Made by a program: the position numbers and the translations under genes. DNA of 64,000 nucleotides from Sulfitobacter mediterraneus (GTDB taxonomy: Bacteria > Pseudomonadota > Alphaproteobacteria > Rhodobacterales > Rhodobacteraceae). The stretch spans positions 3,162,001 to 3,226,000 of the forward strand of contig NZ_CP069004.1 of the NCBI RefSeq assembly GCF_016801775.1, written 5' to 3'. How positions within the stretch are numbered: position 1 is the stretch's first letter; the number at the start of each line of letters is the position of its first letter. Below, piece after piece: positions 4,863 through 16,728 of the stretch. The notes beneath the pieces were generated by a model. That model had not been told where the DNA came from. It saw only the letters and a list, made by a program, of their open reading frames with translations, and did no database searches.

Positions 4863-4880
4863 TTTTACCAGTTGATAAAA
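4863..4880. promoter_or_regulatory. palindromic operator, probable RutR-type site upstream of preT
   Basis: The sequence TTTTACCA-GT-TGATAAAA is an 8-base inverted repeat with a 2-base centre and one mismatch, 53 bases before the preT start. A near-identical palindrome lies at 9662-9677 next to the rutR-like gene. The Escherichia coli RutR box (TTGACCA-N2-TGGTCAA) has the same arm length, spacing and ACCA/TGGT core. Binding by the RutR homologue is inferred. Confidence 0.65.
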
Positions 4881-4933
4881 AAATGAATCCGTGAGACCGT
4901 TTTTAAAAATCAGGTCATTCAGGGGTGTACCAG

Positions 4934-6256
4934 ATGTCATCAGACGTTTTTGCCGAAGGGATCAAGCCGGGCCGGTTGGATCAAGAGAGTTATGAGGCGC
5001 AGTTTTCGGATTTGCATCCGCCACTTGATGCGCATGAAGCGCTGGTGGCGGCTGACCGCTGCTATTTCTGCCATGATGCGCCCTGTATCACGGCCTGCCC
5101 GACGGACATTGATATCCCGCTGTTCATTCGGCAGATCGCCACAGGTACGCCGGACGCGGCGGCCAAAACGATCTTGAGCCAAAACATCATGGGCGGCATG
5201 TGCGCACGTGTCTGTCCGACAGAGACATTGTGCGAAGAGGCCTGTGTGCGTGAATTGGCCGAGGGCAAGCCGGTGCTGATTGGTCAGTTGCAACGCTACG
5301 CCACCGATCATTTGCAAGAACAGGGCGTGCATCCCTTTGAACGAGGCGCCCCTTCGGGCAAGACGGTTGCGGTGGTCGGTGCAGGGCCAGCGGGCCTTTC
5401 TGCGGCGCACCGTTTGGCGATGATGGGGCATGATGTCGTGGTACATGACGCGCGGCCCAAGCCCGGCGGGCTGAACGAATACGGGATCGCCACCTACAAG
5501 ACCCCGGATGGTTTTGCGCAAGGCGAGGTGGATTGGTTGCTGAAAATCGGCGGCATTACCCTGAAACATGACGTGGCCTTGGGGCAGGGGATCACCCTGC
5601 AAGGACTGCGCGATACCTATGATGCGGTTTTTCTCGGGATTGGTCTGGGCGGTGTGAACGCGCTTGGCGCGGATGGCGAGGACAAGGATGGCGTCACCGA
5701 CGCGGTGGATTTCATCGCTGATTTGCGGCAGGCCAGTGATCTGGCCAGCGTACCGATTGGTCGCGATGTTGTGGTGATCGGCGGCGGTATGACCGCTGTT
5801 GATGCCGCCGTGCAGGCCAAGCTGCTGGGCGCATTGAATGTCACTTTGGTCTATCGCCGGGGCCGTGACCGGATGAATGCCAGCGCATTTGAACAAGACC
5901 TCGCAGCCTCAAAGGGCGTGCGGATCGTGACTCATGCAGTGCCAAAGGCGGTGCATGGCAATGGCGCAGTGCGTGAGATCGAATTCGAATACGTAGACGA
6001 GGACATGAACGGCACGGGCCAGACACTGCGCCTTGCGGCGGATCAGGTGTTCAAGGCGATTGGTCAGACCCTTGAGGGGGACGACCTGCCAGAGCTGGAT
6101 GGCCGCAAGATCAAGGTAGATGGCACAGGTCGGACATCGCTTGATCGTGTATGGGCCGGGGGCGATTGTGCGTCAGGCGGTGACGATCTGACAGTGACAG
6201 CAGTTGCCGAAGGCCGCGATGCGGCTATGGATATGCATGAAGTGTTGAGCGCCTAA
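4934..6256 (+). CDS. preT: NAD(P)-dependent dihydropyrimidine dehydrogenase subunit PreT
   Basis: A 440-residue flavoprotein subunit that passes electrons from NAD(P)H to PreA for reduction of uracil or thymine. The N-terminal third carries the Cys clusters CYFCHDAPCITACP and CARVCPTETLCEEAC, the 4Fe-4S ligands of the GltD/DPD N-terminal domain. Two Rossmann motifs follow: AVVGAGPAGLSAAHRL for FAD (about residue 145) and VVVIGGGMTAVDAA for NAD(P) (about 275). The closing FAD contact is WAGGDCASGG. The ATG at 4934 has AGGGG at proper spacing; a GTG three codons earlier overlaps that site. It is the first gene after the palindrome at 4863-4880 and is followed by a methyltransferase gene and preA. 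Confidence 0.92.
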   Translation: MSSDVFAEGIKPGRLDQESYEAQFSDLHPPLDAHEALVAADRCYFCHDAPCITACPTDIDIPLFIRQIATGTPDAAAKTILSQNIMGGMCARVCPTETLCEEACVRELAEGKPVLIGQLQRYATDHLQEQGVHPFERGAPSGKTVAVVGAGPAGLSAAHRLAMMGHDVVVHDARPKPGGLNEYGIATYKTPDGFAQGEVDWLLKIGGITLKHDVALGQGITLQGLRDTYDAVFLGIGLGGVNALGADGEDKDGVTDAVDFIADLRQASDLASVPIGRDVVVIGGGMTAVDAAVQAKLLGALNVTLVYRRGRDRMNASAFEQDLAASKGVRIVTHAVPKAVHGNGAVREIEFEYVDEDMNGTGQTLRLAADQVFKAIGQTLEGDDLPELDGRKIKVDGTGRTSLDRVWAGGDCASGGDDLTVTAVAEGRDAAMDMHEVLSA

Positions 6257-6299
6257 TGCAATATTTTCACACCACCCTGCCTTTGAATGGACGAGGGGA

Positions 6300-7121
6300 A
6301 TGAGCGGCGCTGTCGATCATATCGAACGGCATTATGCGCAGTCGGACCTCTTCGAGAAGATCATCGAAAAGCTTGCTCAGTCAGGGATCGAGGAGGCGCA
6401 GATCACTGCGCAAATCCTCAAGCCGATTGATGAGTTTCATATTGGCGGCATCGCGGCAACCAAGGCTTTGCTTGATCCGCTGGGGCTGACTGCGGACACG
6501 CGGCTGTTGGATATCGGATCGGGGATCGGTGGAACGGCGCGTTTCATTGCCAGTGAATATGGCATCAAGGTCGTCGGCATCGACCTGACGCCGGACTTTG
6601 TAACCTGCGCTGAAAAGCTGAGCGAGATTGTGGGCGCGAAGACGTCCTTTGAGGTGGGCAGCGGAACGCAGTTGCCTTTCGCCGATGCCAGTTTTGACGC
6701 GGCCACGTTGATCCATGTCGGTATGAACATCCAAGATAAGGACAAGCTGTTCGCGGAGGCCGCACGGGTTCTGACCGATGGCGGAGTATTTGCTGTCTAT
6801 GATGTGATGCTGTTCGGCGGGCAGCCGGAATTTCCAGTGCCTTGGGCGACCACGGCAGAGGATTCTTTCCTCGGAACGCCAGCTGACTACCAAACTGCGG
6901 CACAAAAGGCAGGTTTCACCCTTGAGATCCGCAATGACCGGGGTGCGTTTGCAAAACAGTTCTTTGCCGACATGCAGGCCAAGATAGCGGCCTCGGGGCC
7001 GCCGCCGGTAAGCTTGCCAATGCTGATGGGGGACGCAGCCCCAAACAAGATGGCCAACATGATTGGCGCGGTCCAGGCAGACCACATCCAACCCGTAGAA
7101 ATGATTTTTAGAAAGGGCTGA
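6300..7121 (+). CDS. class I SAM-dependent methyltransferase within the pyrimidine operon
   Basis: A 273-residue cytosolic methyltransferase. Motif I LLDIGSGIGGTARF (about residue 70), the acidic VVGIDLTP after strand 2, and motif IV-like PFADASFDAATLIHVGMNI are those of the UbiE/sarcosine-dimethylglycine methyltransferase group. An N-terminal helical region with EFHIGG resembles glycine-betaine-type and small-molecule methyltransferases. The C-terminal region is not distinctive. GAGGGG precedes the ATG. It lies 43 bases after preT and 20 bases before preA, so it is probably co-transcribed with them. No methylation step is known in reductive pyrimidine breakdown, so the substrate is unknown; detoxification or a side branch is possible. 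Confidence 0.8.
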   Translation: MSGAVDHIERHYAQSDLFEKIIEKLAQSGIEEAQITAQILKPIDEFHIGGIAATKALLDPLGLTADTRLLDIGSGIGGTARFIASEYGIKVVGIDLTPDFVTCAEKLSEIVGAKTSFEVGSGTQLPFADASFDAATLIHVGMNIQDKDKLFAEAARVLTDGGVFAVYDVMLFGGQPEFPVPWATTAEDSFLGTPADYQTAAQKAGFTLEIRNDRGAFAKQFFADMQAKIAASGPPPVSLPMLMGDAAPNKMANMIGAVQADHIQPVEMIFRKG

Positions 7122-7141
7122 GGCCCGACAGGAGACGCAAG

Positions 7142-8443
7142 ATGGCAGATCTTTCTTCGAATTTTATCGGGATCAAATCCCCCAACCCGTTCTGGCTGGC
7201 CTCTGCGCCGCCAACGGACAAAGCCTACAATGTGCGCCGCGCATTCGATGCAGGCTGGGGCGGTGTTGTGTGGAAAACCCTTGGGTTAGACCCACATGTC
7301 GTCAACGTGAACGGGCCGCGTTATGGCGCAATTTACGGTGCTGACCGACGACTCTTGGGCTTGAACAACATCGAATTGATCACCGACCGTCCGTTGCAGA
7401 CCAATCTGGACGAAATCAAAGAGGTCAAACGCGACTACCCCGCCCAAGCGATGATCGTGTCGCTCATGGTGCCTTGCGAGGAAGAGCCGTGGAAGATGAT
7501 CCTGCCAATGGTCGAAGAGACAGGCGCGGATGGGGTTGAACTCAACTTTGGCTGCCCACATGGGATGAGTGAACGTGGCATGGGCTCTGCCGTGGGGCAG
7601 GTGCCGGAATACATTGAAATGGTCACGCGCTGGGTCAAGGCGAACACGCGTATGCCAGTGATCGTCAAGTTGACGCCAAACATTACAGACGTGCGCAAGC
7701 CCGCCGAAGCGGCCAAGCGTGGCGGCGCGGATGCGGTGAGCTTGATCAACACAATCAATTCGATCACCTCGGTTGATCTGGACCTTTTTGCGCCGGAGCC
7801 CACCATTGACGGAAAAGGCGCGCATGGCGGCTATTGCGGCCCGGCAGTGAAACCCATTGCCTTGAACATGGTGGCGGAAATCGCCCGCGATCCGGGCCTG
7901 CAAGGCCTGCCGATCAGCGGCATTGGCGGCGTGACAACCTGGAAAGACGCGGCGGAGTTCCTCGCGCTTGGGGCTGGCAACGTGCAGGTCTGCACCGCCG
8001 CGATGACCTATGGCTTTAAGATCGTGCAGGAAATGATCTCGGGTCTGAGCGATTACATGGACAGCAAGGGCATCTCATCCGTTGACGAAATCGTCGGCCG
8101 CGCGGTGCCAAATGTAACGGACTGGAACCAGCTGAACCTGAACTACATCGCCAAGGCGAAAATTAATCAGGATCTGTGCATTTCCTGCGGCCGTTGCTTT
8201 GCCGCTTGCGAGGATACTTCGCACCAGGCGATCGCCATGTCCGAAGACCGCACATTTACAGTGATCGATGAGGAATGCGTGGCTTGCAACCTGTGCGTCA
8301 ACGTTTGCCCCGTCGAAGACTGCATCACGATGGAGGCAATGGCACCGGGCGAGACTGATCCACGGACAGGAAAAGTTGTCCAGCCGGATTATGCCAACTG
8401 GACAACCCATCCCAACAACCCTGCGGCCAACGCTGCAGAATAA
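7142..8443 (+). CDS. preA: NAD-dependent dihydropyrimidine dehydrogenase subunit PreA
   Basis: A 433-residue catalytic subunit that reduces uracil and thymine to the 5,6-dihydro forms, using FMN and electrons from PreT. A dihydroorotate-dehydrogenase-like barrel carries the active-site loop FGCPHGMSERGMG, whose Cys is the proton donor in the family, and the FMN-binding ISGIGGVTTW. The C-terminus has two ferredoxin clusters, CISCGRCFAAC (about residue 345) and CVACNLCVNVC (about 380), followed by CPVEDC. Length matches bacterial PreA. A GGAG site lies 8-11 bases before the ATG. It closes the preT-methyltransferase-preA unit; the next gene is on the opposite strand. Confidence 0.95.
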   Translation: MADLSSNFIGIKSPNPFWLASAPPTDKAYNVRRAFDAGWGGVVWKTLGLDPHVVNVNGPRYGAIYGADRRLLGLNNIELITDRPLQTNLDEIKEVKRDYPAQAMIVSLMVPCEEEPWKMILPMVEETGADGVELNFGCPHGMSERGMGSAVGQVPEYIEMVTRWVKANTRMPVIVKLTPNITDVRKPAEAAKRGGADAVSLINTINSITSVDLDLFAPEPTIDGKGAHGGYCGPAVKPIALNMVAEIARDPGLQGLPISGIGGVTTWKDAAEFLALGAGNVQVCTAAMTYGFKIVQEMISGLSDYMDSKGISSVDEIVGRAVPNVTDWNQLNLNYIAKAKINQDLCISCGRCFAACEDTSHQAIAMSEDRTFTVIDEECVACNLCVNVCPVEDCITMEAMAPGETDPRTGKVVQPDYANWTTHPNNPAANAAE

Positions 8444-8466
8444 CATCTCCTCCCGACCTGTTGACC

Positions 8467-8829
8467 TTACCCTTTCTTGAGAAAGGGCGAGGTTGGCAGC
8501 GGATCGGGCATCGACACTTCAGGAAGGCCGGCACCGGGCAAGGGGGCCGGTTTTTCTGTTTGGGTTTGCGCAGCGACGACCGAACTTCGGGTCGCATCCG
8601 CAGGGCGGGGAAAGGCGCCGCTGATCCTTTTGCGAAACAGCGCTGCATTTGCGCCTTGATCGCTGGTGCCACTGCTGCCAGATCCGGAAAAACCGGTGCT
8701 GTTGCCTGCCGCACGCCCCTGCGCGGCGGCGATGGTCGGCGCGATGACGGGAACAGTGTGGGTATCTGCCGACACACCTGGCGGAGGCGCCTGTGTGACA
8801 AAAGGGTTTGAAAGTAAGATAGAACTCAT
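8467..8829 (-). CDS. small Pro/Ala/Ser-rich hypothetical protein, probably disordered
   Basis: A 120-residue protein starting MSSILLSNPFVTQAPPPG and continuing with low-complexity Ala, Ser, Pro and Gly. A possible short ordered stretch, ANAALFRKRISGAFPRP, lies near the middle. No domain is recognised, and no signal peptide or membrane segment is evident. It is accepted as a gene because GGAG lies 6 bases before the ATG and nothing on the other strand explains the region. It converges with preA, leaving 23 bases between them. Its form (short hydrophobic start, then disordered acidic or Pro/Ala tract) resembles the gene at 51808-52299, but clear homology is not shown. Function unknown. Confidence 0.6.
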   Translation of the reverse strand: MSSILLSNPFVTQAPPPGVSADTHTVPVIAPTIAAAQGRAAGNSTGFSGSGSSGTSDQGANAALFRKRISGAFPRPADATRSSVVAAQTQTEKPAPLPGAGLPEVSMPDPLPTSPFLKKG

Positions 8830-8942
8830 CCTGTGCTCCGATCTTGATCAAGAGGAGCCCGCCACCCGCAATTACCTTGGGGCAAATGTGTAAATGATGT
8901 CCTAATACAATGGACCAGCGTCAATTACGGTAAACCAAAGGT

Positions 8943-9554
8943 TCACGGCGCCAGCAATTTTCGAAACATGGATTGCAGATGGGTGGCAGCGCCGTCAAAA
9001 ACCTCTGCACCGCCCCCCAAAAGCGTATCCACCTGAACTTCGAAATCGGCATAATGCTGGGTTGTTGCCCAGATCGAGAACAGCAAGTGCCGCGGGTCCA
9101 CCGGTGCGAGCTTCCCCGCCTTGACCCAACCCGTGATTACGGCACATTTTTCGTCAAACAATGGTTTCAGCCCATCATGCAATTGCGCCCCCATGCGCGG
9201 TGCGCCTTGCAGGATCTCGTTGGCAAACAAGCGGCTTTCGCGAGGCAAATCGCGGGTCATGTCCAGCTTGCGCTGCACGTAGGCCAGGATTTCCTCCAAT
9301 GGATCGCCGCCCGCGTCCATCTCGACCAAAGGATCAAGCCAGGTTTCCATCAACTGGCTCAGCAGCGTGACGTGGATCTCTTCCTTGCCGTTAAAGTAAT
9401 AAAGGATATTGGGTTTGCTCAGTCCGGCCTCAGTCGCGATCTGGTCAAGAGTCGCGCCGCGATATCCATGGCGGGAAAAGACTTCGAGGGCGGCATCAAG
9501 GATCACGCGGCGATTGCGCATCTGAATGCGACTTGGCTTTTTCGTATCTGGCAC
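8943..9554 (-). CDS. rutR: TetR-family regulator, RutR type
   Basis: A 203-residue repressor. The helix-turn-helix lies at about residues 15-60 (ILDAALEVFSRHGYRGATLD, then AGLSKPNILYYF). The C-terminal ligand domain contains AGWVKAGKLAPVDPRHL-like residues (ITGWVKAGKLAPVDPRHLLF in two parts) and IWATTQHYADF, both closely matching remembered Escherichia coli RutR, which binds uracil and thymine. The start is a GTG at 9554 with a weak GGA upstream; an ATG 11 codons later would remove only the unstructured tail. It is divergent from the carbamoyl-hydrolase gene, and the palindrome at 9662-9677 lies between them, consistent with autoregulation and pyrimidine-responsive control. That regulatory role is inferred. 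Confidence 0.88.
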   Translation of the reverse strand: MPDTKKPSRIQMRNRRVILDAALEVFSRHGYRGATLDQIATEAGLSKPNILYYFNGKEEIHVTLLSQLMETWLDPLVEMDAGGDPLEEILAYVQRKLDMTRDLPRESRLFANEILQGAPRMGAQLHDGLKPLFDEKCAVITGWVKAGKLAPVDPRHLLFSIWATTQHYADFEVQVDTLLGGGAEVFDGAATHLQSMFRKLLAP

Positions 9555-9661
9555 CGTGGCGAAATCCTTGTTGTTGCCGCAAAAACAGGCATCCTAGGTC
9601 TATACCGCCTTTGCAGGTAAAACCAGTTCTTGACAGGGAACATGGTAGACGCAATCGTGTA

Positions 9662-9677
9662 TTTACCAAATGGTAAA
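9662..9677. promoter_or_regulatory. perfect palindromic operator, probable RutR-type site
   Basis: TTTACCA-AA-TGGTAAA is a perfect 7-base inverted repeat with a 2-base centre. It lies 33 bases before the carbamoyl-hydrolase start and 107 bases from the divergent rutR-like start, so it could control both. It matches the site at 4863-4880 in arm sequence and spacing. A possible -35 element TTGACA lies upstream at about 9631, but no good -10 follows it. Confidence 0.7.
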
Positions 9678-9710: not shown

Positions 9711-10961
9711 ATGCCTGCCCCCGGAGAAAACCTTAAGATCAACCCCGATCGTTTGTGGGACAGTCTGATGGAGATGGCTAAAATCGGGCCGGGCGTGGCA
9801 GGCGGTAACAACCGCCAGACACTCACCGATGAAGATGGTGAAGGCCGGTCGCTCTTTCAAAAATGGTGCGAAGATGCAGGCTGCACCATGGGGTTGGACC
9901 AGATGGGAAACATGTTTGCCCGCCGCGAGGGCACAGATCACGATGCATTGCCCGTCTATGTGGGCAGCCATCTGGACACCCAGCCAACAGGCGGCAAATA
10001 TGATGGCGTTTTGGGGGTTCTGGGCGGGCTTGAGATCCTGCGCACGATGAATGATCTGGGGATCAAGACCAAACATCCGATTGTCGTGACCAATTTTACC
10101 AATGAAGAGGGCACGCGCTATGCGCCCGCGATGCTGTCATCGGGAGTGTTTGCTGGCATTCATACGCAAGACTGGGCTTATGACCGCGAAGATGCCGAAG
10201 GCAAGAAATTTGGCGATGAACTCAAGCGGATTGGCTGGCGCGGCGAAGAAGAAACCGGTGCCCGCAAGATGCACGCCTTTTTCGAACTGCACATTGAGCA
10301 GGGCCCGATCCTTGAGGCGGAGGGCAAGGACATCGGAGTTGTCACGCATGGGCAGGGTCTGAGCTGGACGCAAGTGACGATCCACGGCAAGGACAGCCAC
10401 ACCGGATCAACGCCAATGCCGATGCGCAAGAATGCCGGGCTGGGCATGGCGCGCATTTTGGATAAGGTCGACGAGATTGCATGGTCCCATGCGCCCCATG
10501 CCGTTGGCGCGGCGGGGCATATTGATGTCTTTCCCAACTCACGCAATGTGATCCCGGGCAAGGTGGTATTTACCGTTGATTTCCGGTCGCCGGAATTGAA
10601 CGTGATCGAAGATATGGAGGCGCGCTTGCGTGTCGAGGGTCAGAAGATTGCCGATGACATGGGCCTTAAGATCGAATTTGAGAAGGTCGGCGGATTCGAT
10701 CCGGTGGCCTTTGACGAAGGCTGCGTGACTGCGGTGCGCAATGCGGCGGAGCGTTTGGGCTATTCGCATATGAACCTGATCTCCGGTGCAGGACATGATG
10801 CCTGCTGGATCAATCGTGTTGCACCTACGGCGATGGTTATGTGCCCTTGTGTTGATGGTCTGAGCCACAATGAAGCCGAAGAAATTTCCAAAGAATGGGC
10901 GATGGCCGGGGCGGATGTGCTACTGCATGCGGTGGTAGAAACAGCGGAGGTTGTGGGGTGA
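9711..10961 (+). CDS. Zn-dependent hydrolase, beta-ureidopropionase / N-carbamoyl amino acid hydrolase type (M20 family)
   Basis: A 416-residue amidohydrolase. Metal ligands of the M20 carbamoyl-hydrolase group are visible: His87 in VGSHLDTQ, Asp98 in GGKYDGVLG, the Glu pair in TNEEGTRY, His in FELHIEQGP, and the C-terminal His in GLSHNEAEE. GKDSHTGSTPMPMR lies in the dimer lid. Members include allantoate amidohydrolase and hydantoinase-linked carbamoylases. Position with preTA and dihydropyrimidinase points to beta-ureidopropionase (the pydC role), cleaving N-carbamoyl-beta-alanine to beta-alanine, carbon dioxide and ammonia. The ATG at 9711 has AAGGAG upstream; an earlier ATG at 9630 would place the operator inside the gene. 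GGAGG for the next gene lies inside its 3' end. Confidence 0.88.
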   Translation: MPAPGENLKINPDRLWDSLMEMAKIGPGVAGGNNRQTLTDEDGEGRSLFQKWCEDAGCTMGLDQMGNMFARREGTDHDALPVYVGSHLDTQPTGGKYDGVLGVLGGLEILRTMNDLGIKTKHPIVVTNFTNEEGTRYAPAMLSSGVFAGIHTQDWAYDREDAEGKKFGDELKRIGWRGEEETGARKMHAFFELHIEQGPILEAEGKDIGVVTHGQGLSWTQVTIHGKDSHTGSTPMPMRKNAGLGMARILDKVDEIAWSHAPHAVGAAGHIDVFPNSRNVIPGKVVFTVDFRSPELNVIEDMEARLRVEGQKIADDMGLKIEFEKVGGFDPVAFDEGCVTAVRNAAERLGYSHMNLISGAGHDACWINRVAPTAMVMCPCVDGLSHNEAEEISKEWAMAGADVLLHAVVETAEVVG

Positions 10962-11631: not shown

Positions 11632-13092
11632 ATGAGCAAGGTGATCAAGGGCGGAATGGTTTGCACGGCAGACCGGACGTGGAAAGCAGATGTGCTGATC
11701 GAGGGAGAAACGATCAAGCAGATCGGTGAGGACCTCAAGGGAGATGAATACATCGATGCCGAAGGCGCCTATGTGATCCCCGGCGGCATTGACCCGCACA
11801 CCCATTTGGAAATGCCCTTCATGGGCACCACGGCGGCAGAGACATTCGAGACCGGCACATGGGCGGCGGCCTGTGGCGGGACCACGATGGTGGTCGATTT
11901 CTGTCTGCCCGGCGCGGATGGGTCGATCAAGAACGCGATCAACGAATGGCACCGCAAGTCGGCGCCGCAGATCTGTTCGGATGTGGGCTATCACATGGCG
12001 ATCACCGGTTGGGACGAGAATGTCTTTAACGAGATGAAAGATGCCGTGGAAATGGGGGTGAACTCCTTCAAACATTTCATGGCCTACAAAGGCGCATTGA
12101 TGATCGAGGATGATGAGATGTTCGCCTCTTTCAAGCGCTGTGCCGAGTTGGGTGCCTTGCCGATGGTGCATGCAGAGAACGGTGATCTGGTCGCCGAGTT
12201 GCAGCAGAAGTATTTCGATCAGGGGATCACCGGTCCGGAGGGGCATGCCTATTCCCGCCCGCCGGAGCTTGAGGGCGAGGCGGCAAACCGCGCGATCACC
12301 ATTGCCGATACTGCAGGTGTGCCCTTGTACATTGTGCATGTGTCCTGCGAGCAGACCCATGAGGCGATCCGCCGGGCGAGGCAGAAGGGGATGCGGGTTT
12401 ATGGCGAGCCGCTGATCCAGTTCCTGACTCTGGACGAGAGCGAGTATTTCAACAAGGATTGGGATCATGCCGCGCGGCGCGTGATGTCGCCTCCGTTCCG
12501 GTCAAAGGACCATCAGGACAGTTTGTGGGCCGGTTTGCAAGCAGGCAGCCTCCAAGTGGTGGCCACGGACCACGCGGCCTTCAACACCGAACAGAAACGC
12601 GCCGGGCGTGATGATTTCCGGATCATTCCAAACGGGTCGAACGGGCTTGAGGAACGTCTGGGCGTGCTTTGGACCGAGGGTGTGGAAACCGGACGCCTGA
12701 CGCCAAATGAATTTGTCGCGGCGACCTCGACCAATGTGGCGAAGATTCTCAACATCTATCCGCGCAAGGGTGCCATCGTTGAGGGGGCCGATGCCGATAT
12801 CGTGGTATGGGATCCCAAGATCACCAAGACCATCAGCCCCGCCAATCATCATTCGATTTTGGATTACAACGTTTTCGAGGGGTTTGAGGTCACGGCCAAC
12901 GCACGCTACACGCTCAGCCGCGGTGATGTGATCTGGGCCTGGGGCCAGAATAGCCAGCCACAACCGGGCCGAGGCAAGTTTATTCCGCGTCCTGCGTTCC
13001 CAAGCGCCAATGTGGCGCTGAGCAAGTGGAAGGCGCTGACCAGCCCGAAGATGATCAAACGAGACCCACTGAACATTCCGGCGGGTATCTGA
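11632..13092 (+). CDS. hydA: dihydropyrimidinase (hydantoinase)
   Basis: A 486-residue amidohydrolase that opens dihydrouracil or dihydrothymine to N-carbamoyl-beta-amino acids. The dinuclear zinc site is visible: GIDPHTHLEMPF gives the HxH pair, Lys153 in FMAYKG is the carboxylated Lys, VHAENG and YIVHVSCEQ give two further His, and ATDHAAFN gives the Asp. Length and motifs fit D-hydantoinase/dihydropyrimidinase. GGGAGAAAG precedes the ATG. Together with PreTA and the carbamoyl hydrolase, this completes the three-step reductive route. A GC-rich hairpin at 13109-13135 separates it from the transporter genes, which follow after 57 bases. Confidence 0.95.
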   Translation: MSKVIKGGMVCTADRTWKADVLIEGETIKQIGEDLKGDEYIDAEGAYVIPGGIDPHTHLEMPFMGTTAAETFETGTWAAACGGTTMVVDFCLPGADGSIKNAINEWHRKSAPQICSDVGYHMAITGWDENVFNEMKDAVEMGVNSFKHFMAYKGALMIEDDEMFASFKRCAELGALPMVHAENGDLVAELQQKYFDQGITGPEGHAYSRPPELEGEAANRAITIADTAGVPLYIVHVSCEQTHEAIRRARQKGMRVYGEPLIQFLTLDESEYFNKDWDHAARRVMSPPFRSKDHQDSLWAGLQAGSLQVVATDHAAFNTEQKRAGRDDFRIIPNGSNGLEERLGVLWTEGVETGRLTPNEFVAATSTNVAKILNIYPRKGAIVEGADADIVVWDPKITKTISPANHHSILDYNVFEGFEVTANARYTLSRGDVIWAWGQNSQPQPGRGKFIPRPAFPSANVALSKWKALTSPKMIKRDPLNIPAGI

Positions 13093-13149: not shown

Positions 13150-13935
13150 GTGACTGAAAAGCAGAGCGTGATCAGCGCCAAGAACCTAGACCTGACCTTT
13201 CAAACCAATGACGGGCCGGTCCATGCGTTGAAAGACGTGAACCTTGAGATCAAGGACGGCGATTTTGTATCGTTCATTGGCCCGTCAGGCTGTGGCAAGA
13301 CCACATTTTTGCGGGTCATGGCGGATCTGGAGCAGCCCACGGGCGGGACCGTGACCGTGAATGGTGTGAGCCCCGAAGAGGCACGACGCCAGCGGGCCTA
13401 CGGCTATGTGTTTCAGGCGGCGGGGCTTTATCCCTGGCGCACCATTGGTGGCAATATCCGGCTTCCGCTTGAGATCATGGGGGTGCCACGCGCGGAGCAG
13501 GCCGAGCGGGTGCAGCGGGTTTTGGAGCTGGTTGAACTGGCCGGTTTCGAAAAGAAATTCCCTTGGCAGCTGTCGGGCGGGATGCAGCAGCGTGCCTCGA
13601 TTGCGCGGGCGCTGAGTTTTGATGCGGACATTCTGCTGATGGATGAGCCTTTTGGCGCGCTAGATGAGATCGTGCGCGATCACCTGAATGAACAATTGCT
13701 GCATCTGTGGGAACGAACGGGCAAGACCATCGCCTTTGTCACCCATTCAATCCCCGAGGCGGTCTATCTGAGCACAAAGATCGTGGTGATGTCGCCGCGT
13801 CCGGGGCGGATCACGGATGTGATTGACAGCCCGCTGCCCAAGGACCGCCCTTTGGACATCCGCGACACGCCGGAGTTTCTCGAAGTGGCGCACCGGGTGC
13901 GTGAAGGGCTGCGTGCGGGGCATCAAGATGATTGA
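13150..13935 (+). CDS. ABC transporter ATP-binding protein, nitrate/taurine/pyrimidine importer class
   Basis: A 261-residue ATPase with Walker A GPSGCGKTTFLR, signature LSGGMQQRASIARAL, Walker B ILLMDEPFGALDE and switch FVTHSIPEA. The GMQQR signature with FGALDE is typical of the NrtD/TauB/SsuB group that energises NMT1/THI5-type importers, matching the binding protein three genes downstream. The start is GTG at 13150 with GAGGG 7 bases upstream; an ATG 5 bases earlier reads into a stop. It is followed by two permease genes. The likely substrate is a pyrimidine or related ring, from its position beside hydA. Confidence 0.9.
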   Translation: MTEKQSVISAKNLDLTFQTNDGPVHALKDVNLEIKDGDFVSFIGPSGCGKTTFLRVMADLEQPTGGTVTVNGVSPEEARRQRAYGYVFQAAGLYPWRTIGGNIRLPLEIMGVPRAEQAERVQRVLELVELAGFEKKFPWQLSGGMQQRASIARALSFDADILLMDEPFGALDEIVRDHLNEQLLHLWERTGKTIAFVTHSIPEAVYLSTKIVVMSPRPGRITDVIDSPLPKDRPLDIRDTPEFLEVAHRVREGLRAGHQDD

Positions 13936-13998
13936 CCCGCAGTGGACGCAGACAGGTCAGATGAGTTTTTCTAGCCAAATGAAGCAGGGGGGCGGCGC

Positions 13999-14862
13999 AT
14001 GAGGGGATCTGTTGTTCCTGTTTTGAGCGTTGTCGGGTTTTTGCTGGTGATGTGGTACGCGGCTGCGGTCTGGCTGAATGCACCTTGGGCCTATGATAAA
14101 GCCACGCGCAGCGGTGAGGTTCTGACCACCTCGACCTTGATCGCGGATACGTGGTCACAAGAAAAGCCCAAACTGCCTGCGCCACATCAGGTGGGCAAAG
14201 AGATTTGGAAAACCACGGTTGAGAAAAAGATCACCTCCAAACGGTCGTTGATCTATCATTCCTGGGTGACACTCAGCGCGACTTTGCTGGGCTTTGTAAT
14301 GGGCACCGGACTTGGCATTCTGCTGGCGGTCGGGATTGTTTACAACCGGACCATGGATATGAGCGTGATGCCTTGGGTCATTGCCTCACAGACCATTCCC
14401 ATTCTGGCGATCGCGCCTATGATCATCGTGGTGCTCAACGCAGTTGGCATTTCGGGGCTTTTGCCCAAGGCGATGATTTCGATGTATCTGTCGTTTTTCC
14501 CTGTGGTTGTCGGCATGGTCAAAGGCCTGCGCAGCCCCGATCAGATGCAGCTTGATCAGATGCGCACATGGTTTGCGAGCAAATCCCAGACGTTTTGGAA
14601 GCTGCGCCTGCCGGCGTCGATGCCATATCTCTTTACATCGCTCAAGATCGGAATGGCGGCGTCACTCGTCGGGGCCATTGTGGGCGAATTGCCAACAGGC
14701 GCGGTGGCCGGTTTGGGGGCACGTTTGCTCGCTGGTAGCTATTATGGCCAGACAATACAAATCTGGTCTGCTTTGTTGATGGCGGCGGCACTGGCAGCGA
14801 CGCTTGTCGGCATCATCGGGATCATTCAGCGTGTTACGCTGAAACGGATGGGGATGGCGTGA
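13999..14862 (+). CDS. ABC transporter permease 1, NMT1/THI5-linked importer
   Basis: A 287-residue inner-membrane permease. An N-terminal membrane segment (about 5-25) is followed by a roughly 70-residue loop, then the BPD_transp_1 core with GLGILLAVGIV, AIAPMIIVVLNAVGISG and the EAA-like loop LRLPASMPYLFTSLKIGMAAS that contacts the ATPase. The loop between the first and second segments is longer than in SsuC or TauC. The start ATG is preceded by AGGGGGG. The stop overlaps the next ATG by one base (TGATG). It forms the channel together with the second permease. Confidence 0.87.
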   Translation: MRGSVVPVLSVVGFLLVMWYAAAVWLNAPWAYDKATRSGEVLTTSTLIADTWSQEKPKLPAPHQVGKEIWKTTVEKKITSKRSLIYHSWVTLSATLLGFVMGTGLGILLAVGIVYNRTMDMSVMPWVIASQTIPILAIAPMIIVVLNAVGISGLLPKAMISMYLSFFPVVVGMVKGLRSPDQMQLDQMRTWFASKSQTFWKLRLPASMPYLFTSLKIGMAASLVGAIVGELPTGAVAGLGARLLAGSYYGQTIQIWSALLMAAALAATLVGIIGIIQRVTLKRMGMA

Positions 14863-15701
14863 TGGGCTGGCTTGTCTTTGCAGCGGTTGCCTGGATCGCG
14901 GGTTGGATGCTCAACGTCTGGCTGGCGCGGCGCCCGCCGTCGCGGCTCACGGGGCTGGCCTCTCCCATCGTGTTTGGCATCACGTTGATTGCGGTCTGGG
15001 AAGGGGTCGTGAACGGCTTTGAGATCAATCAGGTCTTGTTGCCCGCGCCCAGCGTCATTGCCGTGCGCTTTGCATCCTCCACTGCGATCTTGTGGGTGGA
15101 TTTTATGCAGACGGTCCTCAAAGGCGCACTTTCGGGATATATCATCGGCTGTGGGTCGGCATTCCTGATTGCGGTGGCCATTGACCGGTTCCCGTTTTTG
15201 CAACGCGGGCTGTTGCCGGTCGGCAATTTTGTGGCCGCTTTACCGGTGATCGGGATGGCGCCCATTCTGGTGATGTGGTTCGGGTTTGACTGGCAATCCA
15301 AAGCGGCGGTGGTCGTGGTCATGGTGTTCTTTCCGATGTTGGTGAATACTGTGCAGGGATTGCAATCAACCGATGCGATGCAGCGCGACCTGATGCGGAC
15401 CTATGCGGCGGGCTATTGGAAGACCTTGCTGAAGCTGCGGTTGCCTGCTGCAATGCCGTTTGTGTTCAACGGCCTCAAGATCGGGACAACGCTGGCGTTG
15501 ATCGGGGCGATTGTTGCCGAATTTTTCGGCTCTCCGGTCAAAGGCATGGGGTTTCGCATTTCAACATCGGTCGGACAGCTTGCGCTTGATCTGGTCTGGG
15601 CCGAGATTGTGGTGGCGGCGATTGTCGGATCAGCCTTTTATGGGTTGATGGCGCTGGTCGAAAAACATGTGACATTCTGGCATCCAAGCCAGCGGAAATA
15701 A
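14862..15701 (+). CDS. ABC transporter permease 2, NMT1/THI5-linked importer
   Basis: A 279-residue inner-membrane permease, the partner of the preceding gene. It has two N-terminal membrane segments (about 3-20 and 33-52), then the BPD_transp_1 core with AALPVIGMAPILVMWFGF and the EAA-like loop LRLPAAMPFVFNGLKIGTTLA. The ATG is taken as the start; a GTG one codon earlier overlaps the previous stop as GTGA and would change only one residue. Two different permeases imply a heterodimeric channel. Confidence 0.87.
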   Translation: MGWLVFAAVAWIAGWMLNVWLARRPPSRLTGLASPIVFGITLIAVWEGVVNGFEINQVLLPAPSVIAVRFASSTAILWVDFMQTVLKGALSGYIIGCGSAFLIAVAIDRFPFLQRGLLPVGNFVAALPVIGMAPILVMWFGFDWQSKAAVVVVMVFFPMLVNTVQGLQSTDAMQRDLMRTYAAGYWKTLLKLRLPAAMPFVFNGLKIGTTLALIGAIVAEFFGSPVKGMGFRISTSVGQLALDLVWAEIVVAAIVGSAFYGLMALVEKHVTFWHPSQRK

Positions 15702-15738
15702 CTACGATATGAAGACCAACCAAGAGGGAGATAACAAA

Positions 15739-16728
15739 ATGAAAAAATTTACAAAATTGGCAGCCGGTGCGGCGCTGGGTCTATGGGGGACCATGGCGCA
15801 GGCGGCAGACGATGTCACATTGCAGCTGAAATGGGTCACGCAGGCCCAGTTCGCGGGCTACTACGTGGCTTTGGACAAGGGCTTTTACGAAGAAGAAGGC
15901 CTCAACGTTACAATCAAACCGGGCGGCCCTGACATTGCGCCCACACAGGTTCTGGCTGGCGGCGGCGCAGATGTAACCGTTGACTGGATGCCATCTGCAT
16001 TGTCAGCACGCGAAAAAGGCTTGCCGATGGTGAACATCGCCCAGCCGTTCAAAAGCTCTGGCATGATGTTGACCTGCCGCAAAGATGCAGGCGTGACCAG
16101 CACAGACGATTTCAAAGGCAAAACGCTGGGCGTATGGTTCTTTGGCAACGAATTCCCGTTCCTGAGCTGGATGAGCAAACTGGGCATTTCGACCGATGGC
16201 GGCGATGATGGCGTCACGGTGCTCAAGCAGGGTTTCAACGTGGATCCGCTTTTGCAGAAACAGGCCGCTTGCGTGTCCACCATGACCTACAACGAATACT
16301 GGCAGGTGATTGATGCGGGTCTGACACCGGACGATCTGCAGGTGTTCAAATACGAAGACCAAGGCGTCGCGACGCTGGAGGATGGCCTGTATGTTCTCGA
16401 AGACAAACTGTCTGATCCGGCGTTTGAAGACAAAATGGTCCGCTTTGTACGGGCGTCCATGAAGGGCTGGAAATATGCGGAATCCAATCCGGATGAAGCC
16501 GCGGAAATCGTTCTGGACAACGATGCATCCGGCGCACAGACGGAAATGCACCAAAAGCGCATGATGGGCGAAGTGGCCAAGCTGACCGCGGGCAGCAACG
16601 GCGCACTTGATCCGGCCGATTATGAGCGCACGGTGGCATCCTTGCTGTCTGGTGGTTCCGATCCGGTGATCTCCAAAGCGCCTGAAGGGGCCTGGACACA
16701 TCAGATTACGGACAAAGCGCTGAACTAA
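15739..16728 (+). CDS. NMT1/THI5-like substrate-binding protein, probable pyrimidine importer
   Basis: A 329-residue periplasmic protein. The signal peptide MKKFTKLAAGAALGLWGTMA ends at AQA, followed by LQLKWVTQAQFAGYYVALDK, the start of the NMT1/THI5-like fold known from hydroxymethylpyrimidine-type binding proteins. GVWFFGNEFPFLSWM lies at the domain crossover. GAGGGAG lies 8 bases before the ATG; a longer upstream frame adds 10 residues before the signal peptide and is rejected. The last gene of the transporter operon, it is followed by a strong terminator. Substrate (uracil, thymine or a related pyrimidine) is inferred from context. Confidence 0.88.
   Translation: MKKFTKLAAGAALGLWGTMAQAADDVTLQLKWVTQAQFAGYYVALDKGFYEEEGLNVTIKPGGPDIAPTQVLAGGGADVTVDWMPSALSAREKGLPMVNIAQPFKSSGMMLTCRKDAGVTSTDDFKGKTLGVWFFGNEFPFLSWMSKLGISTDGGDDGVTVLKQGFNVDPLLQKQAACVSTMTYNEYWQVIDAGLTPDDLQVFKYEDQGVATLEDGLYVLEDKLSDPAFEDKMVRFVRASMKGWKYAESNPDEAAEIVLDNDASGAQTEMHQKRMMGEVAKLTAGSNGALDPADYERTVASLLSGGSDPVISKAPEGAWTHQITDKALN

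What the first reader, a model, noticed from the sequence alone, without database searches (positions are those of the whole stretch)
4863..9677. Two matching palindromes define a local RutR-type regulon for pyrimidine breakdown
TTTTACCA-GT-TGATAAAA before preT and TTTACCA-AA-TGGTAAA between rutR and the carbamoyl hydrolase share arm sequence and 2-base spacing. No third copy was noticed elsewhere in the window. The core resembles the Escherichia coli RutR box but with T in place of G near the ends. This suggests a direct operator for a RutR homologue controlling the reductive pathway; in Escherichia coli, RutR controls the unrelated Rut route.
Basis: partly seen in the sequence, partly recalled or inferred. 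Interest (0 to 1): 0.7.

Follow-up and report, generated by a model that had tools for sequence, protein, structure and literature searches.

The report
RutR-type switch for pyrimidine breakdown genes
Two matching DNA palindromes here are very probably the landing sites of a uracil-sensing repressor that turns pyrimidine-breakdown genes on and off: a known kind of switch, with a lineage-specific version of the landing site.

Summary
TTTACCAGTTGATAAA (4864-4879) and TTTACCAAATGGTAAA (9662-9677) are the only places in the 4.21 Mb genome matching TTTACCANNTGRTAAA with at most one mismatch. Related loci carry such boxes at the same promoters: upstream of preT in 97 of 100 testable loci and of rutR in 130 of 156, against 0-1 hits at each control gene. 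The adjacent TetR-type regulator keeps the five uracil-contact residues reported for E. coli RutR.

Pseudomonas putida PydR is named in a cited title as a RutR-like repressor of dihydropyrimidine dehydrogenase, and RutR regulons with taxon-specific motif changes were predicted across Proteobacteria.

Added detail: (1) the 'T in place of G' operator between rutR and the carbamoylase gene marks one clade of RutR proteins. (2) The lopsided preT box probably doubles as the -35 element: 93 of 100 boxes contain TTGATA, and 86 of those 93 have an extended -10 motif 16-17 bp further on, with none at ten other spacings. Binding, ligand and promoters remain untested experimentally.

The parts
4864..4879 (+). 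operator 1, TTTACCA-GT-TGATAAA, starts 70 bp before the preT ATG
4872..4877 (+). predicted -35 hexamer TTGATA of the preT promoter, inside operator 1
   Evidence: inferred, not mapped
4892..4900 (+). predicted extended -10 (TGa-GACCGT) of the preT promoter, 17 bp spacer
   Evidence: inferred, not mapped
4934..6256 (+). preT, flavoprotein subunit of dihydropyrimidine dehydrogenase (GltD-like); in-frame GTG at 4925 is an alternative start
   Evidence: (passes no curated cut-off), position next to preA
6300..7121 (+). SAM-dependent methyltransferase gene lying between preT and preA; role unknown
7142..8443 (+). preA, dihydropyrimidine dehydrogenase subunit
   Evidence: NF006183, 727 bits, cut-off 335
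8943..9554 (-). RutR/PydR-like TetR-family regulator, 203 aa
9630..9635 (+). predicted -35 TTGACA of the carbamoylase-operon promoter
   Evidence: inferred, not mapped
9653..9658 (+). predicted -10 AATCGT of the carbamoylase-operon promoter, 17 bp spacer
   Evidence: inferred, not mapped
9662..9677 (.). operator 2, TTTACCA-AA-TGGTAAA, between rutR and the carbamoylase gene, would cover the predicted start site of the carbamoylase operon
9664..9669 (-). possible -35 TTGGTA of a rutR promoter, inside operator 2
   Evidence: weak inference
9642..9647 (-). possible -10 TACCAT of a rutR promoter, 16 bp spacer
   Evidence: weak inference
9711..10961 (+). hydantoinase/carbamoylase family amidase (probable beta-ureidopropionase)
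   Evidence: TIGR01879, 397 bits, cut-off 204; substrate inferred from context
11632..13092 (+). dihydropyrimidinase
   Evidence: TIGR02033, 582 bits, cut-off 393
13150..16728 (+). ABC transporter: ATPase 13150-13935, permeases 13999-14862 and 14859-15701, NMT1-type binding protein 15709-16728; pyrimidine uptake is inferred

Best explanation
The regulator at 8943-9554 is a RutR/PydR-type repressor that binds both palindromes as a dimer and lets go when uracil or thymine fills its pocket. At preT the operator covers the -35 hexamer TTGATA; at the carbamoylase-dihydropyrimidinase-transporter operon it covers the predicted start site. Bound repressor blocks RNA polymerase at both promoters, so pyrimidines switch on uptake and the reductive route together. 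The regulator may also control its own gene through operator 2. Shown here by computation: the sites, their rarity and conservation, gene content, pocket conservation and the promoter-like spacing. Inferred: binding, ligand, repression (rather than activation) and start sites.
For: Only two places in the genome at 0-1 mismatch. A box upstream of preT in 97 of 100 and of rutR in 130 of 156 loci; controls preA 0/106, dihydropyrimidinase 1/108, ATPase 1/111, permeases 0/109 and 0/108, binding protein 0/85, reversed pattern 1/100 at preT and 0/156 at rutR. One TetR_C_3 protein in the genome. Counterparts of the five E. coli RutR uracil-contact residues kept in 154-155 of 155 rows (residues, counts). 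TTGATA in 93 of 100 preT boxes, extended -10 at 16-17 bp in 86 of 93, none at ten other spacings. No RutA over the cut-off in the genome. Precedent: P. putida PydR (title only).
Against: No binding, expression or start-site data. The regulator misses the curated RutR cut-offs (231 of 368 bits; 202 of 230). 26 of 156 loci have no box scoring 15 or more within 350 bp of rutR, in part because the box lies upstream of the carbamoylase gene instead (12 loci so classed). The proposed -10 hexamers fit TATAAT poorly and a general promoter scan listed none of them. The box pattern was written after seeing sites, and loci are related by descent.
Confidence: 0.87

Rival explanations
1. The regulator works as an activator or dual regulator at one of the promoters: binding near -35 helps polymerase, and the ligand tunes this instead of simply releasing repression.
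For: E. coli RutR is described as an indirect activator of carAB as well as a repressor of rut genes (passage in PMC10891134).
Against: Operator 1 overlaps the predicted -35 itself and operator 2 the predicted start site, positions that usually block polymerase; PydR is named a repressor (title).
Confidence: 0.08
2. The sites are read by a different regulator and merely lie next to rutR.
For: The preT box differs from the E. coli-type box and no binding test was done.
Against: The boxes go with rutR-like genes in 157 loci chosen for having one (this choice cannot show loci without rutR); one genome with a divergent RutR (G031, 54-55% identical) also has a different divergent operator.
Confidence: 0.04
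3. The palindromes are chance or serve only as promoter or structural sequence.
For: Part of each site coincides with promoter-like hexamers.
Against: Conserved two-fold symmetric arms beyond the hexamers, genome-wide rarity and recurrence at two unlinked promoters in many genera with controls near zero.
Confidence: 0.01

Closest known systems
Pseudomonas putida PydR (Hidese et al. 2012; only the title seen, in the reference list of PMC7332683)
   Same: RutR-like regulator acting on the dihydropyrimidine dehydrogenase gene of the reductive pyrimidine pathway.
   Different: Different class of Proteobacteria; its operator sequence and promoter layout were not available to compare.
Escherichia coli RutR (PMC10891134, passages read; PDB 3loc, 4jyk)
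   Same: TetR_N + TetR_C_3 protein; uracil-contact residues and DNA-contact lysines conserved; about 16-bp palindromic operator next to its own gene.
   Different: E. coli RutR controls the oxidative Rut genes and carAB; here the targets are the reductive route and a transporter. The outer operator base is T instead of the G of the E. coli consensus TTGACCANNTGGTCAA (consensus letters recalled, not read in a paper here).
Predicted RutR regulons of Proteobacteria, Leyn et al. 2016 / RegPrecise (PMC5343134; section 8 and found passages read)
   Same: RutR regulons predicted in 68 genomes of 13 taxa, with taxon-specific motif substitutions stated for RutR.
   Different: The passages read give no motif letters or target genes for RutR; supplements could not be read, so the preT site or the T-type operator may already be listed there.

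Membership tests
RutR (NCBIfam equivalogs TIGR03613 and NF011584) | score over the curated cut-off | tested here: not met
   231.2 of 368 bits and 202 of 230 bits
RutR/YcdC-like TetR regulators (Pfam TetR_N + TetR_C_3) | both domains over the gathering score | tested here: met
   TetR_C_3 161.9 bits (cut-off 25), TetR_N 54.9 (24)
RutR-type regulation (works like RutR) | uracil pocket residues of E. coli RutR (W77, Y97, W167, Q171, Q179) | tested here: met
   window W72, Y92, W162, Q166, Q174; kept in 155, 154, 155, 155, 154 of 155 rows, one of which is E. coli itself
RutR-type regulation (works like RutR) | 16-bp palindromic operator with ACCA-N2-TGGT core beside the regulator gene | tested here: met
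   9662-9677 and 130 of 156 related loci
RutR-type regulation (works like RutR) | operator binding released by uracil or thymine | not testable with these tools
   needs purified protein
E. coli Rut regulon | controls rutA-G | tested here: not met
   best RutA match in the genome 22 bits, cut-off 498.3
PydR-type regulation of the reductive pathway | direct repression of the dihydropyrimidine dehydrogenase gene | not testable with these tools
   site upstream of preT found; repression not measured

The most novel reading that the evidence does not exclude
In one Rhodobacteraceae lineage (with members labelled Sulfitobacter, Planktotalea, Lutimaribacter and Rhodosalinus) the RutR operator was re-coded symmetrically from TTGACC-GGTCAA to TTTACC-GGTAAA together with regulator changes just behind the recognition helix (positions 55-56, mostly D/E/N/Q-G instead of P-S or R-R), and the operator arm was later taken over as the -35 element of the regulator's own promoter. 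Operator and core promoter would then evolve as one shared sequence at preT and, later, at rutR.
Probability: 0.3. Interest if true: 0.5.

Novelty: new member of a known kind. Interest (0 to 1): 0.32.

Why it matters
It gives a concrete, well-conserved model of how many Alphaproteobacteria could switch on the use of uracil and thymine. It also offers a natural series of G-type, hybrid and T-type operators with their regulators, in which one can test how a repressor and its operator change together and how an operator can double as part of a promoter.

Tried and rejected
A third target in the own genome: a G-type palindrome (genome C1:1619406) lies upstream of an 8-oxoguanine deaminase gene (683.7 bits, cut-off 532). 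It is shared by the nearest relative G035 (L225), but the best box in 24 other congeneric genomes with the gene scores 13 of 16 or less. The exact G-type pattern occurs in 11 of 42 congeneric genomes and the reversed control also in 11 of 42. Rejected as a conserved target.

Extra exact T-type sites in two relatives: in G049 beside a 963-codon ORF that looks like a transposase (my reading, no family scan), in G019 contig 15 between ORFs without evident link to pyrimidines. Rejected.

Regulator residues tracking the operator: G at position 56 agrees with a T half-site in 127 of 132 rows, but only 4-5 independent pairs exist on the tree and the sign test cannot reach 0.05. Left as a hypothesis.

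The idea that a rutR promoter drove the operator change: 20 of 65 T-type loci lack the TANNNT hexamer at 16 bp, so the T-type operator is wider than that promoter. Rejected as a cause.

The general promoter scan found 5 promoter-like sites (6.1 expected) and none of those proposed here; terminator-like sites 17 (12.4 expected). Two RutR papers, PMC2952853 and PMC4325133, are not held.
Full report
OBSERVATION. Operator 1, TTTACCAGTTGATAAA at 4864-4879, starts 70 bp before the preT ATG (4934). Operator 2, TTTACCAAATGGTAAA at 9662-9677, lies between the GTG of the regulator gene (9554, minus strand) and the ATG of the carbamoylase gene (9711). In the window every other match to TTTACCANNTGRTAAA has 3 mismatches. 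In the whole genome (4,211,149 bases, 5 contigs) these are the only two places with 0-1 mismatch; with up to 2 mismatches there are 34 hits against 31 for the reversed pattern.

GENES. PreA, dihydropyrimidinase and a hydantoinase/carbamoylase-type amidase pass curated cut-offs; PreT is GltD-like and passes none. An ABC transporter with an NMT1-type binding protein follows. The regulator has TetR_N and TetR_C_3 domains and is the only TetR_C_3 match in the genome. It scores 231 of 368 bits for one RutR equivalog model and 202 of 230 for another: RutR-like, not filed as RutR. The best RutA match in the genome is 22 bits against a cut-off of 498.3, so the Rut route was not found.

CONSERVATION. 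The exact pattern occurs in 67 of 118 related genomes: 60 of 62 of the same genus, 4 of 8 of the same family, 3 of 48 others of the class; the reversed pattern in 3 of 62, 2 of 8 and 3 of 48. A box of at least 15 of 16 lies within 350 bp upstream of preT in 97 of 100 loci with enough sequence, of rutR in 130 of 156 and of the carbamoylase gene in 113 of 143 (often the same box as for rutR). Controls: preA 0/106, dihydropyrimidinase 1/108, ATPase 1/111, permeases 0/109 and 0/108, binding protein 0/85, the gene before preT 0/5; reversed pattern 1/100, 0/156, 0/143. Of 100 preT boxes scoring 15 or more (out of 103 loci with at least 120 bp upstream), 96 start 55-80 bp before preT. Limits: the pattern was written after seeing sites, all loci were chosen for having rutR, and they are related by descent.

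TWO OPERATOR TYPES. At the rutR side I classed 65 loci T/T (TTTACC-GGTAAA), 43 G/G (TTGACC-GGTCAA, first base T or C), 11 G/G by a box found only upstream of the carbamoylase gene, 15 TTGACC-GGACAA (Rhizobiales), 3 hybrids, 10 without a site and 10 others. On a maximum-likelihood tree of 155 rows (E. coli and 154 distinct proteins; one short and two identical proteins of the 157 loci have no row of their own), the 62 T/T rows lie in one 65-row clade supported 100/99, together with two rows that are G/G by the carbamoylase box (L092 Roseovarius gaetbuli, L095) and one hybrid (L185). The label T/T needs 3 changes; T against G alone needs 2. One congeneric genome, G031 (L073), has a RutR only 54-55% identical that falls outside this clade, and a hybrid operator TTGACCAACTGGTAAA. 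The preT box behaves differently: in most Rhodobacteraceae loci of both types it reads TTTACC-TGATAAA. With T/T at rutR the left arm is T-type in 29 and G-type in 5 loci; with G/G it is T-type in 29, with a few other variants. In the Rhizobiales loci it reads TTGACC-TGATAAA.

WHY THE preT BOX IS LOPSIDED. In the 100 preT boxes the second spacer base is T in 99, and positions 9-14 read TTGATA, one base from TTGACA, in 93. In those 93, TGn followed by a hexamer with A at position 2 and T at position 6 lies 16 bp (42 loci) or 17 bp (44 loci) further on, 86 in all; at the ten other spacings from 12 to 23 no locus has both features. After thinning to 64 loci under 65% identical downstream of the box, 57 have TTGATA and 56 have the extended -10, against 0-2 at seven shifted spacing pairs. 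In the window this gives -35 at 4872-4877 and TGa-GACCGT at 4892-4900. I read the conserved A of the right arm and T of the spacer as promoter constraint on an operator that doubles as a -35 element. The hexamers fit TATAAT poorly and the general scan did not list them, so start sites must be mapped.

THE DIVERGENT REGION. Towards the carbamoylase gene, TTGAY starts exactly 32 bp before the box in 94 of 130 loci (65 T/T, 28 G/G, 1 hybrid), with an A2/T6 hexamer at spacer 17 in 66 and at spacer 16 in 29. In the window TTGACA 9630-9635 and AATCGT 9653-9658 would place the start inside operator 2. Towards rutR, the T-type operator carries TTGGTA in 64 of 65 loci and TANNNT follows at 16 bp in 45 of 65 (16 of 26 after thinning; the next best offset has 9 of 65); of 41 G/G loci none has an A2/T6 hexamer there. 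Twenty T-type loci lack it, so this promoter does not explain the operator change.

SIGNAL. PMC10891134 (passages read) reports uracil held by Q171, W167, W77, Y97 through a water, and Q179 of the partner chain. The counterparts here, Q166, W162, W72, Y92 and Q174, are kept in 155, 155, 155, 154 and 154 of 155 rows; the lysines K52 and K62 correspond to K47 and K57, kept in 154 and 155. Uracil or thymine is the likely ligand; this is inference.

COMPARISON. A RutR-like repressor of dihydropyrimidine dehydrogenase in the reductive route is known from P. putida (PydR, Hidese et al. 2012; only the title seen). Leyn et al. 2016 (PMC5343134; section 8 and passages read) predicted RutR regulons in 68 genomes of 13 taxa and state taxon-specific substitutions in RutR motifs. 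Eight literature searches listed no paper that, from title or abstract, treats this operator in Rhodobacterales; the library lacks most subscription journals. I file this as a new member of a known kind, with two details I did not see described: a clade-specific operator and the operator/-35 overlap.

VERDICT. Observation confirmed, interpretation supported, binding untested. Ordinary in kind, informative in detail.

Noticed in passing
6300-7121: A methyltransferase gene separates preT from preA. Homologues (41-55% identical) sit in the same slot in 12 other of 106 loci with both genes (Mesorhizobium, Ruegeria, Roseovarius and others), but not in the closest relative G035 (L194); several loci have a different insert of about 800 bp there.
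   Followed up: partly
L067, L098, L107, L110, L114, L119, L122, L124, L154 (upstream of preT): A second box lies exactly 17 bp upstream of the preT box in 9 of 100 loci at 15 of 16 or better, mostly Ruegeria: a possible tandem operator.
   Followed up: partly
L202:1501-1516 (own genome C1:1619406-1619421): A perfect G-type palindrome about 100 bp upstream of an 8-oxoguanine deaminase gene, shared only with the nearest relative among those checked.
   Followed up: yes
G019:C7:91864-92456 (L074): The rutR homologue of this relative is split over two reading frames although exact T-type sites are still beside the locus.
   Followed up: no
L073 (G031): A congeneric genome with a divergent RutR (54-55% identical, grouping outside the T clade) and a hybrid operator: looks like replacement of regulator and operator together.
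   Followed up: partly
8467-8829, minus strand: A 120-codon ORF between preA and rutR without a Pfam match.
   Followed up: no
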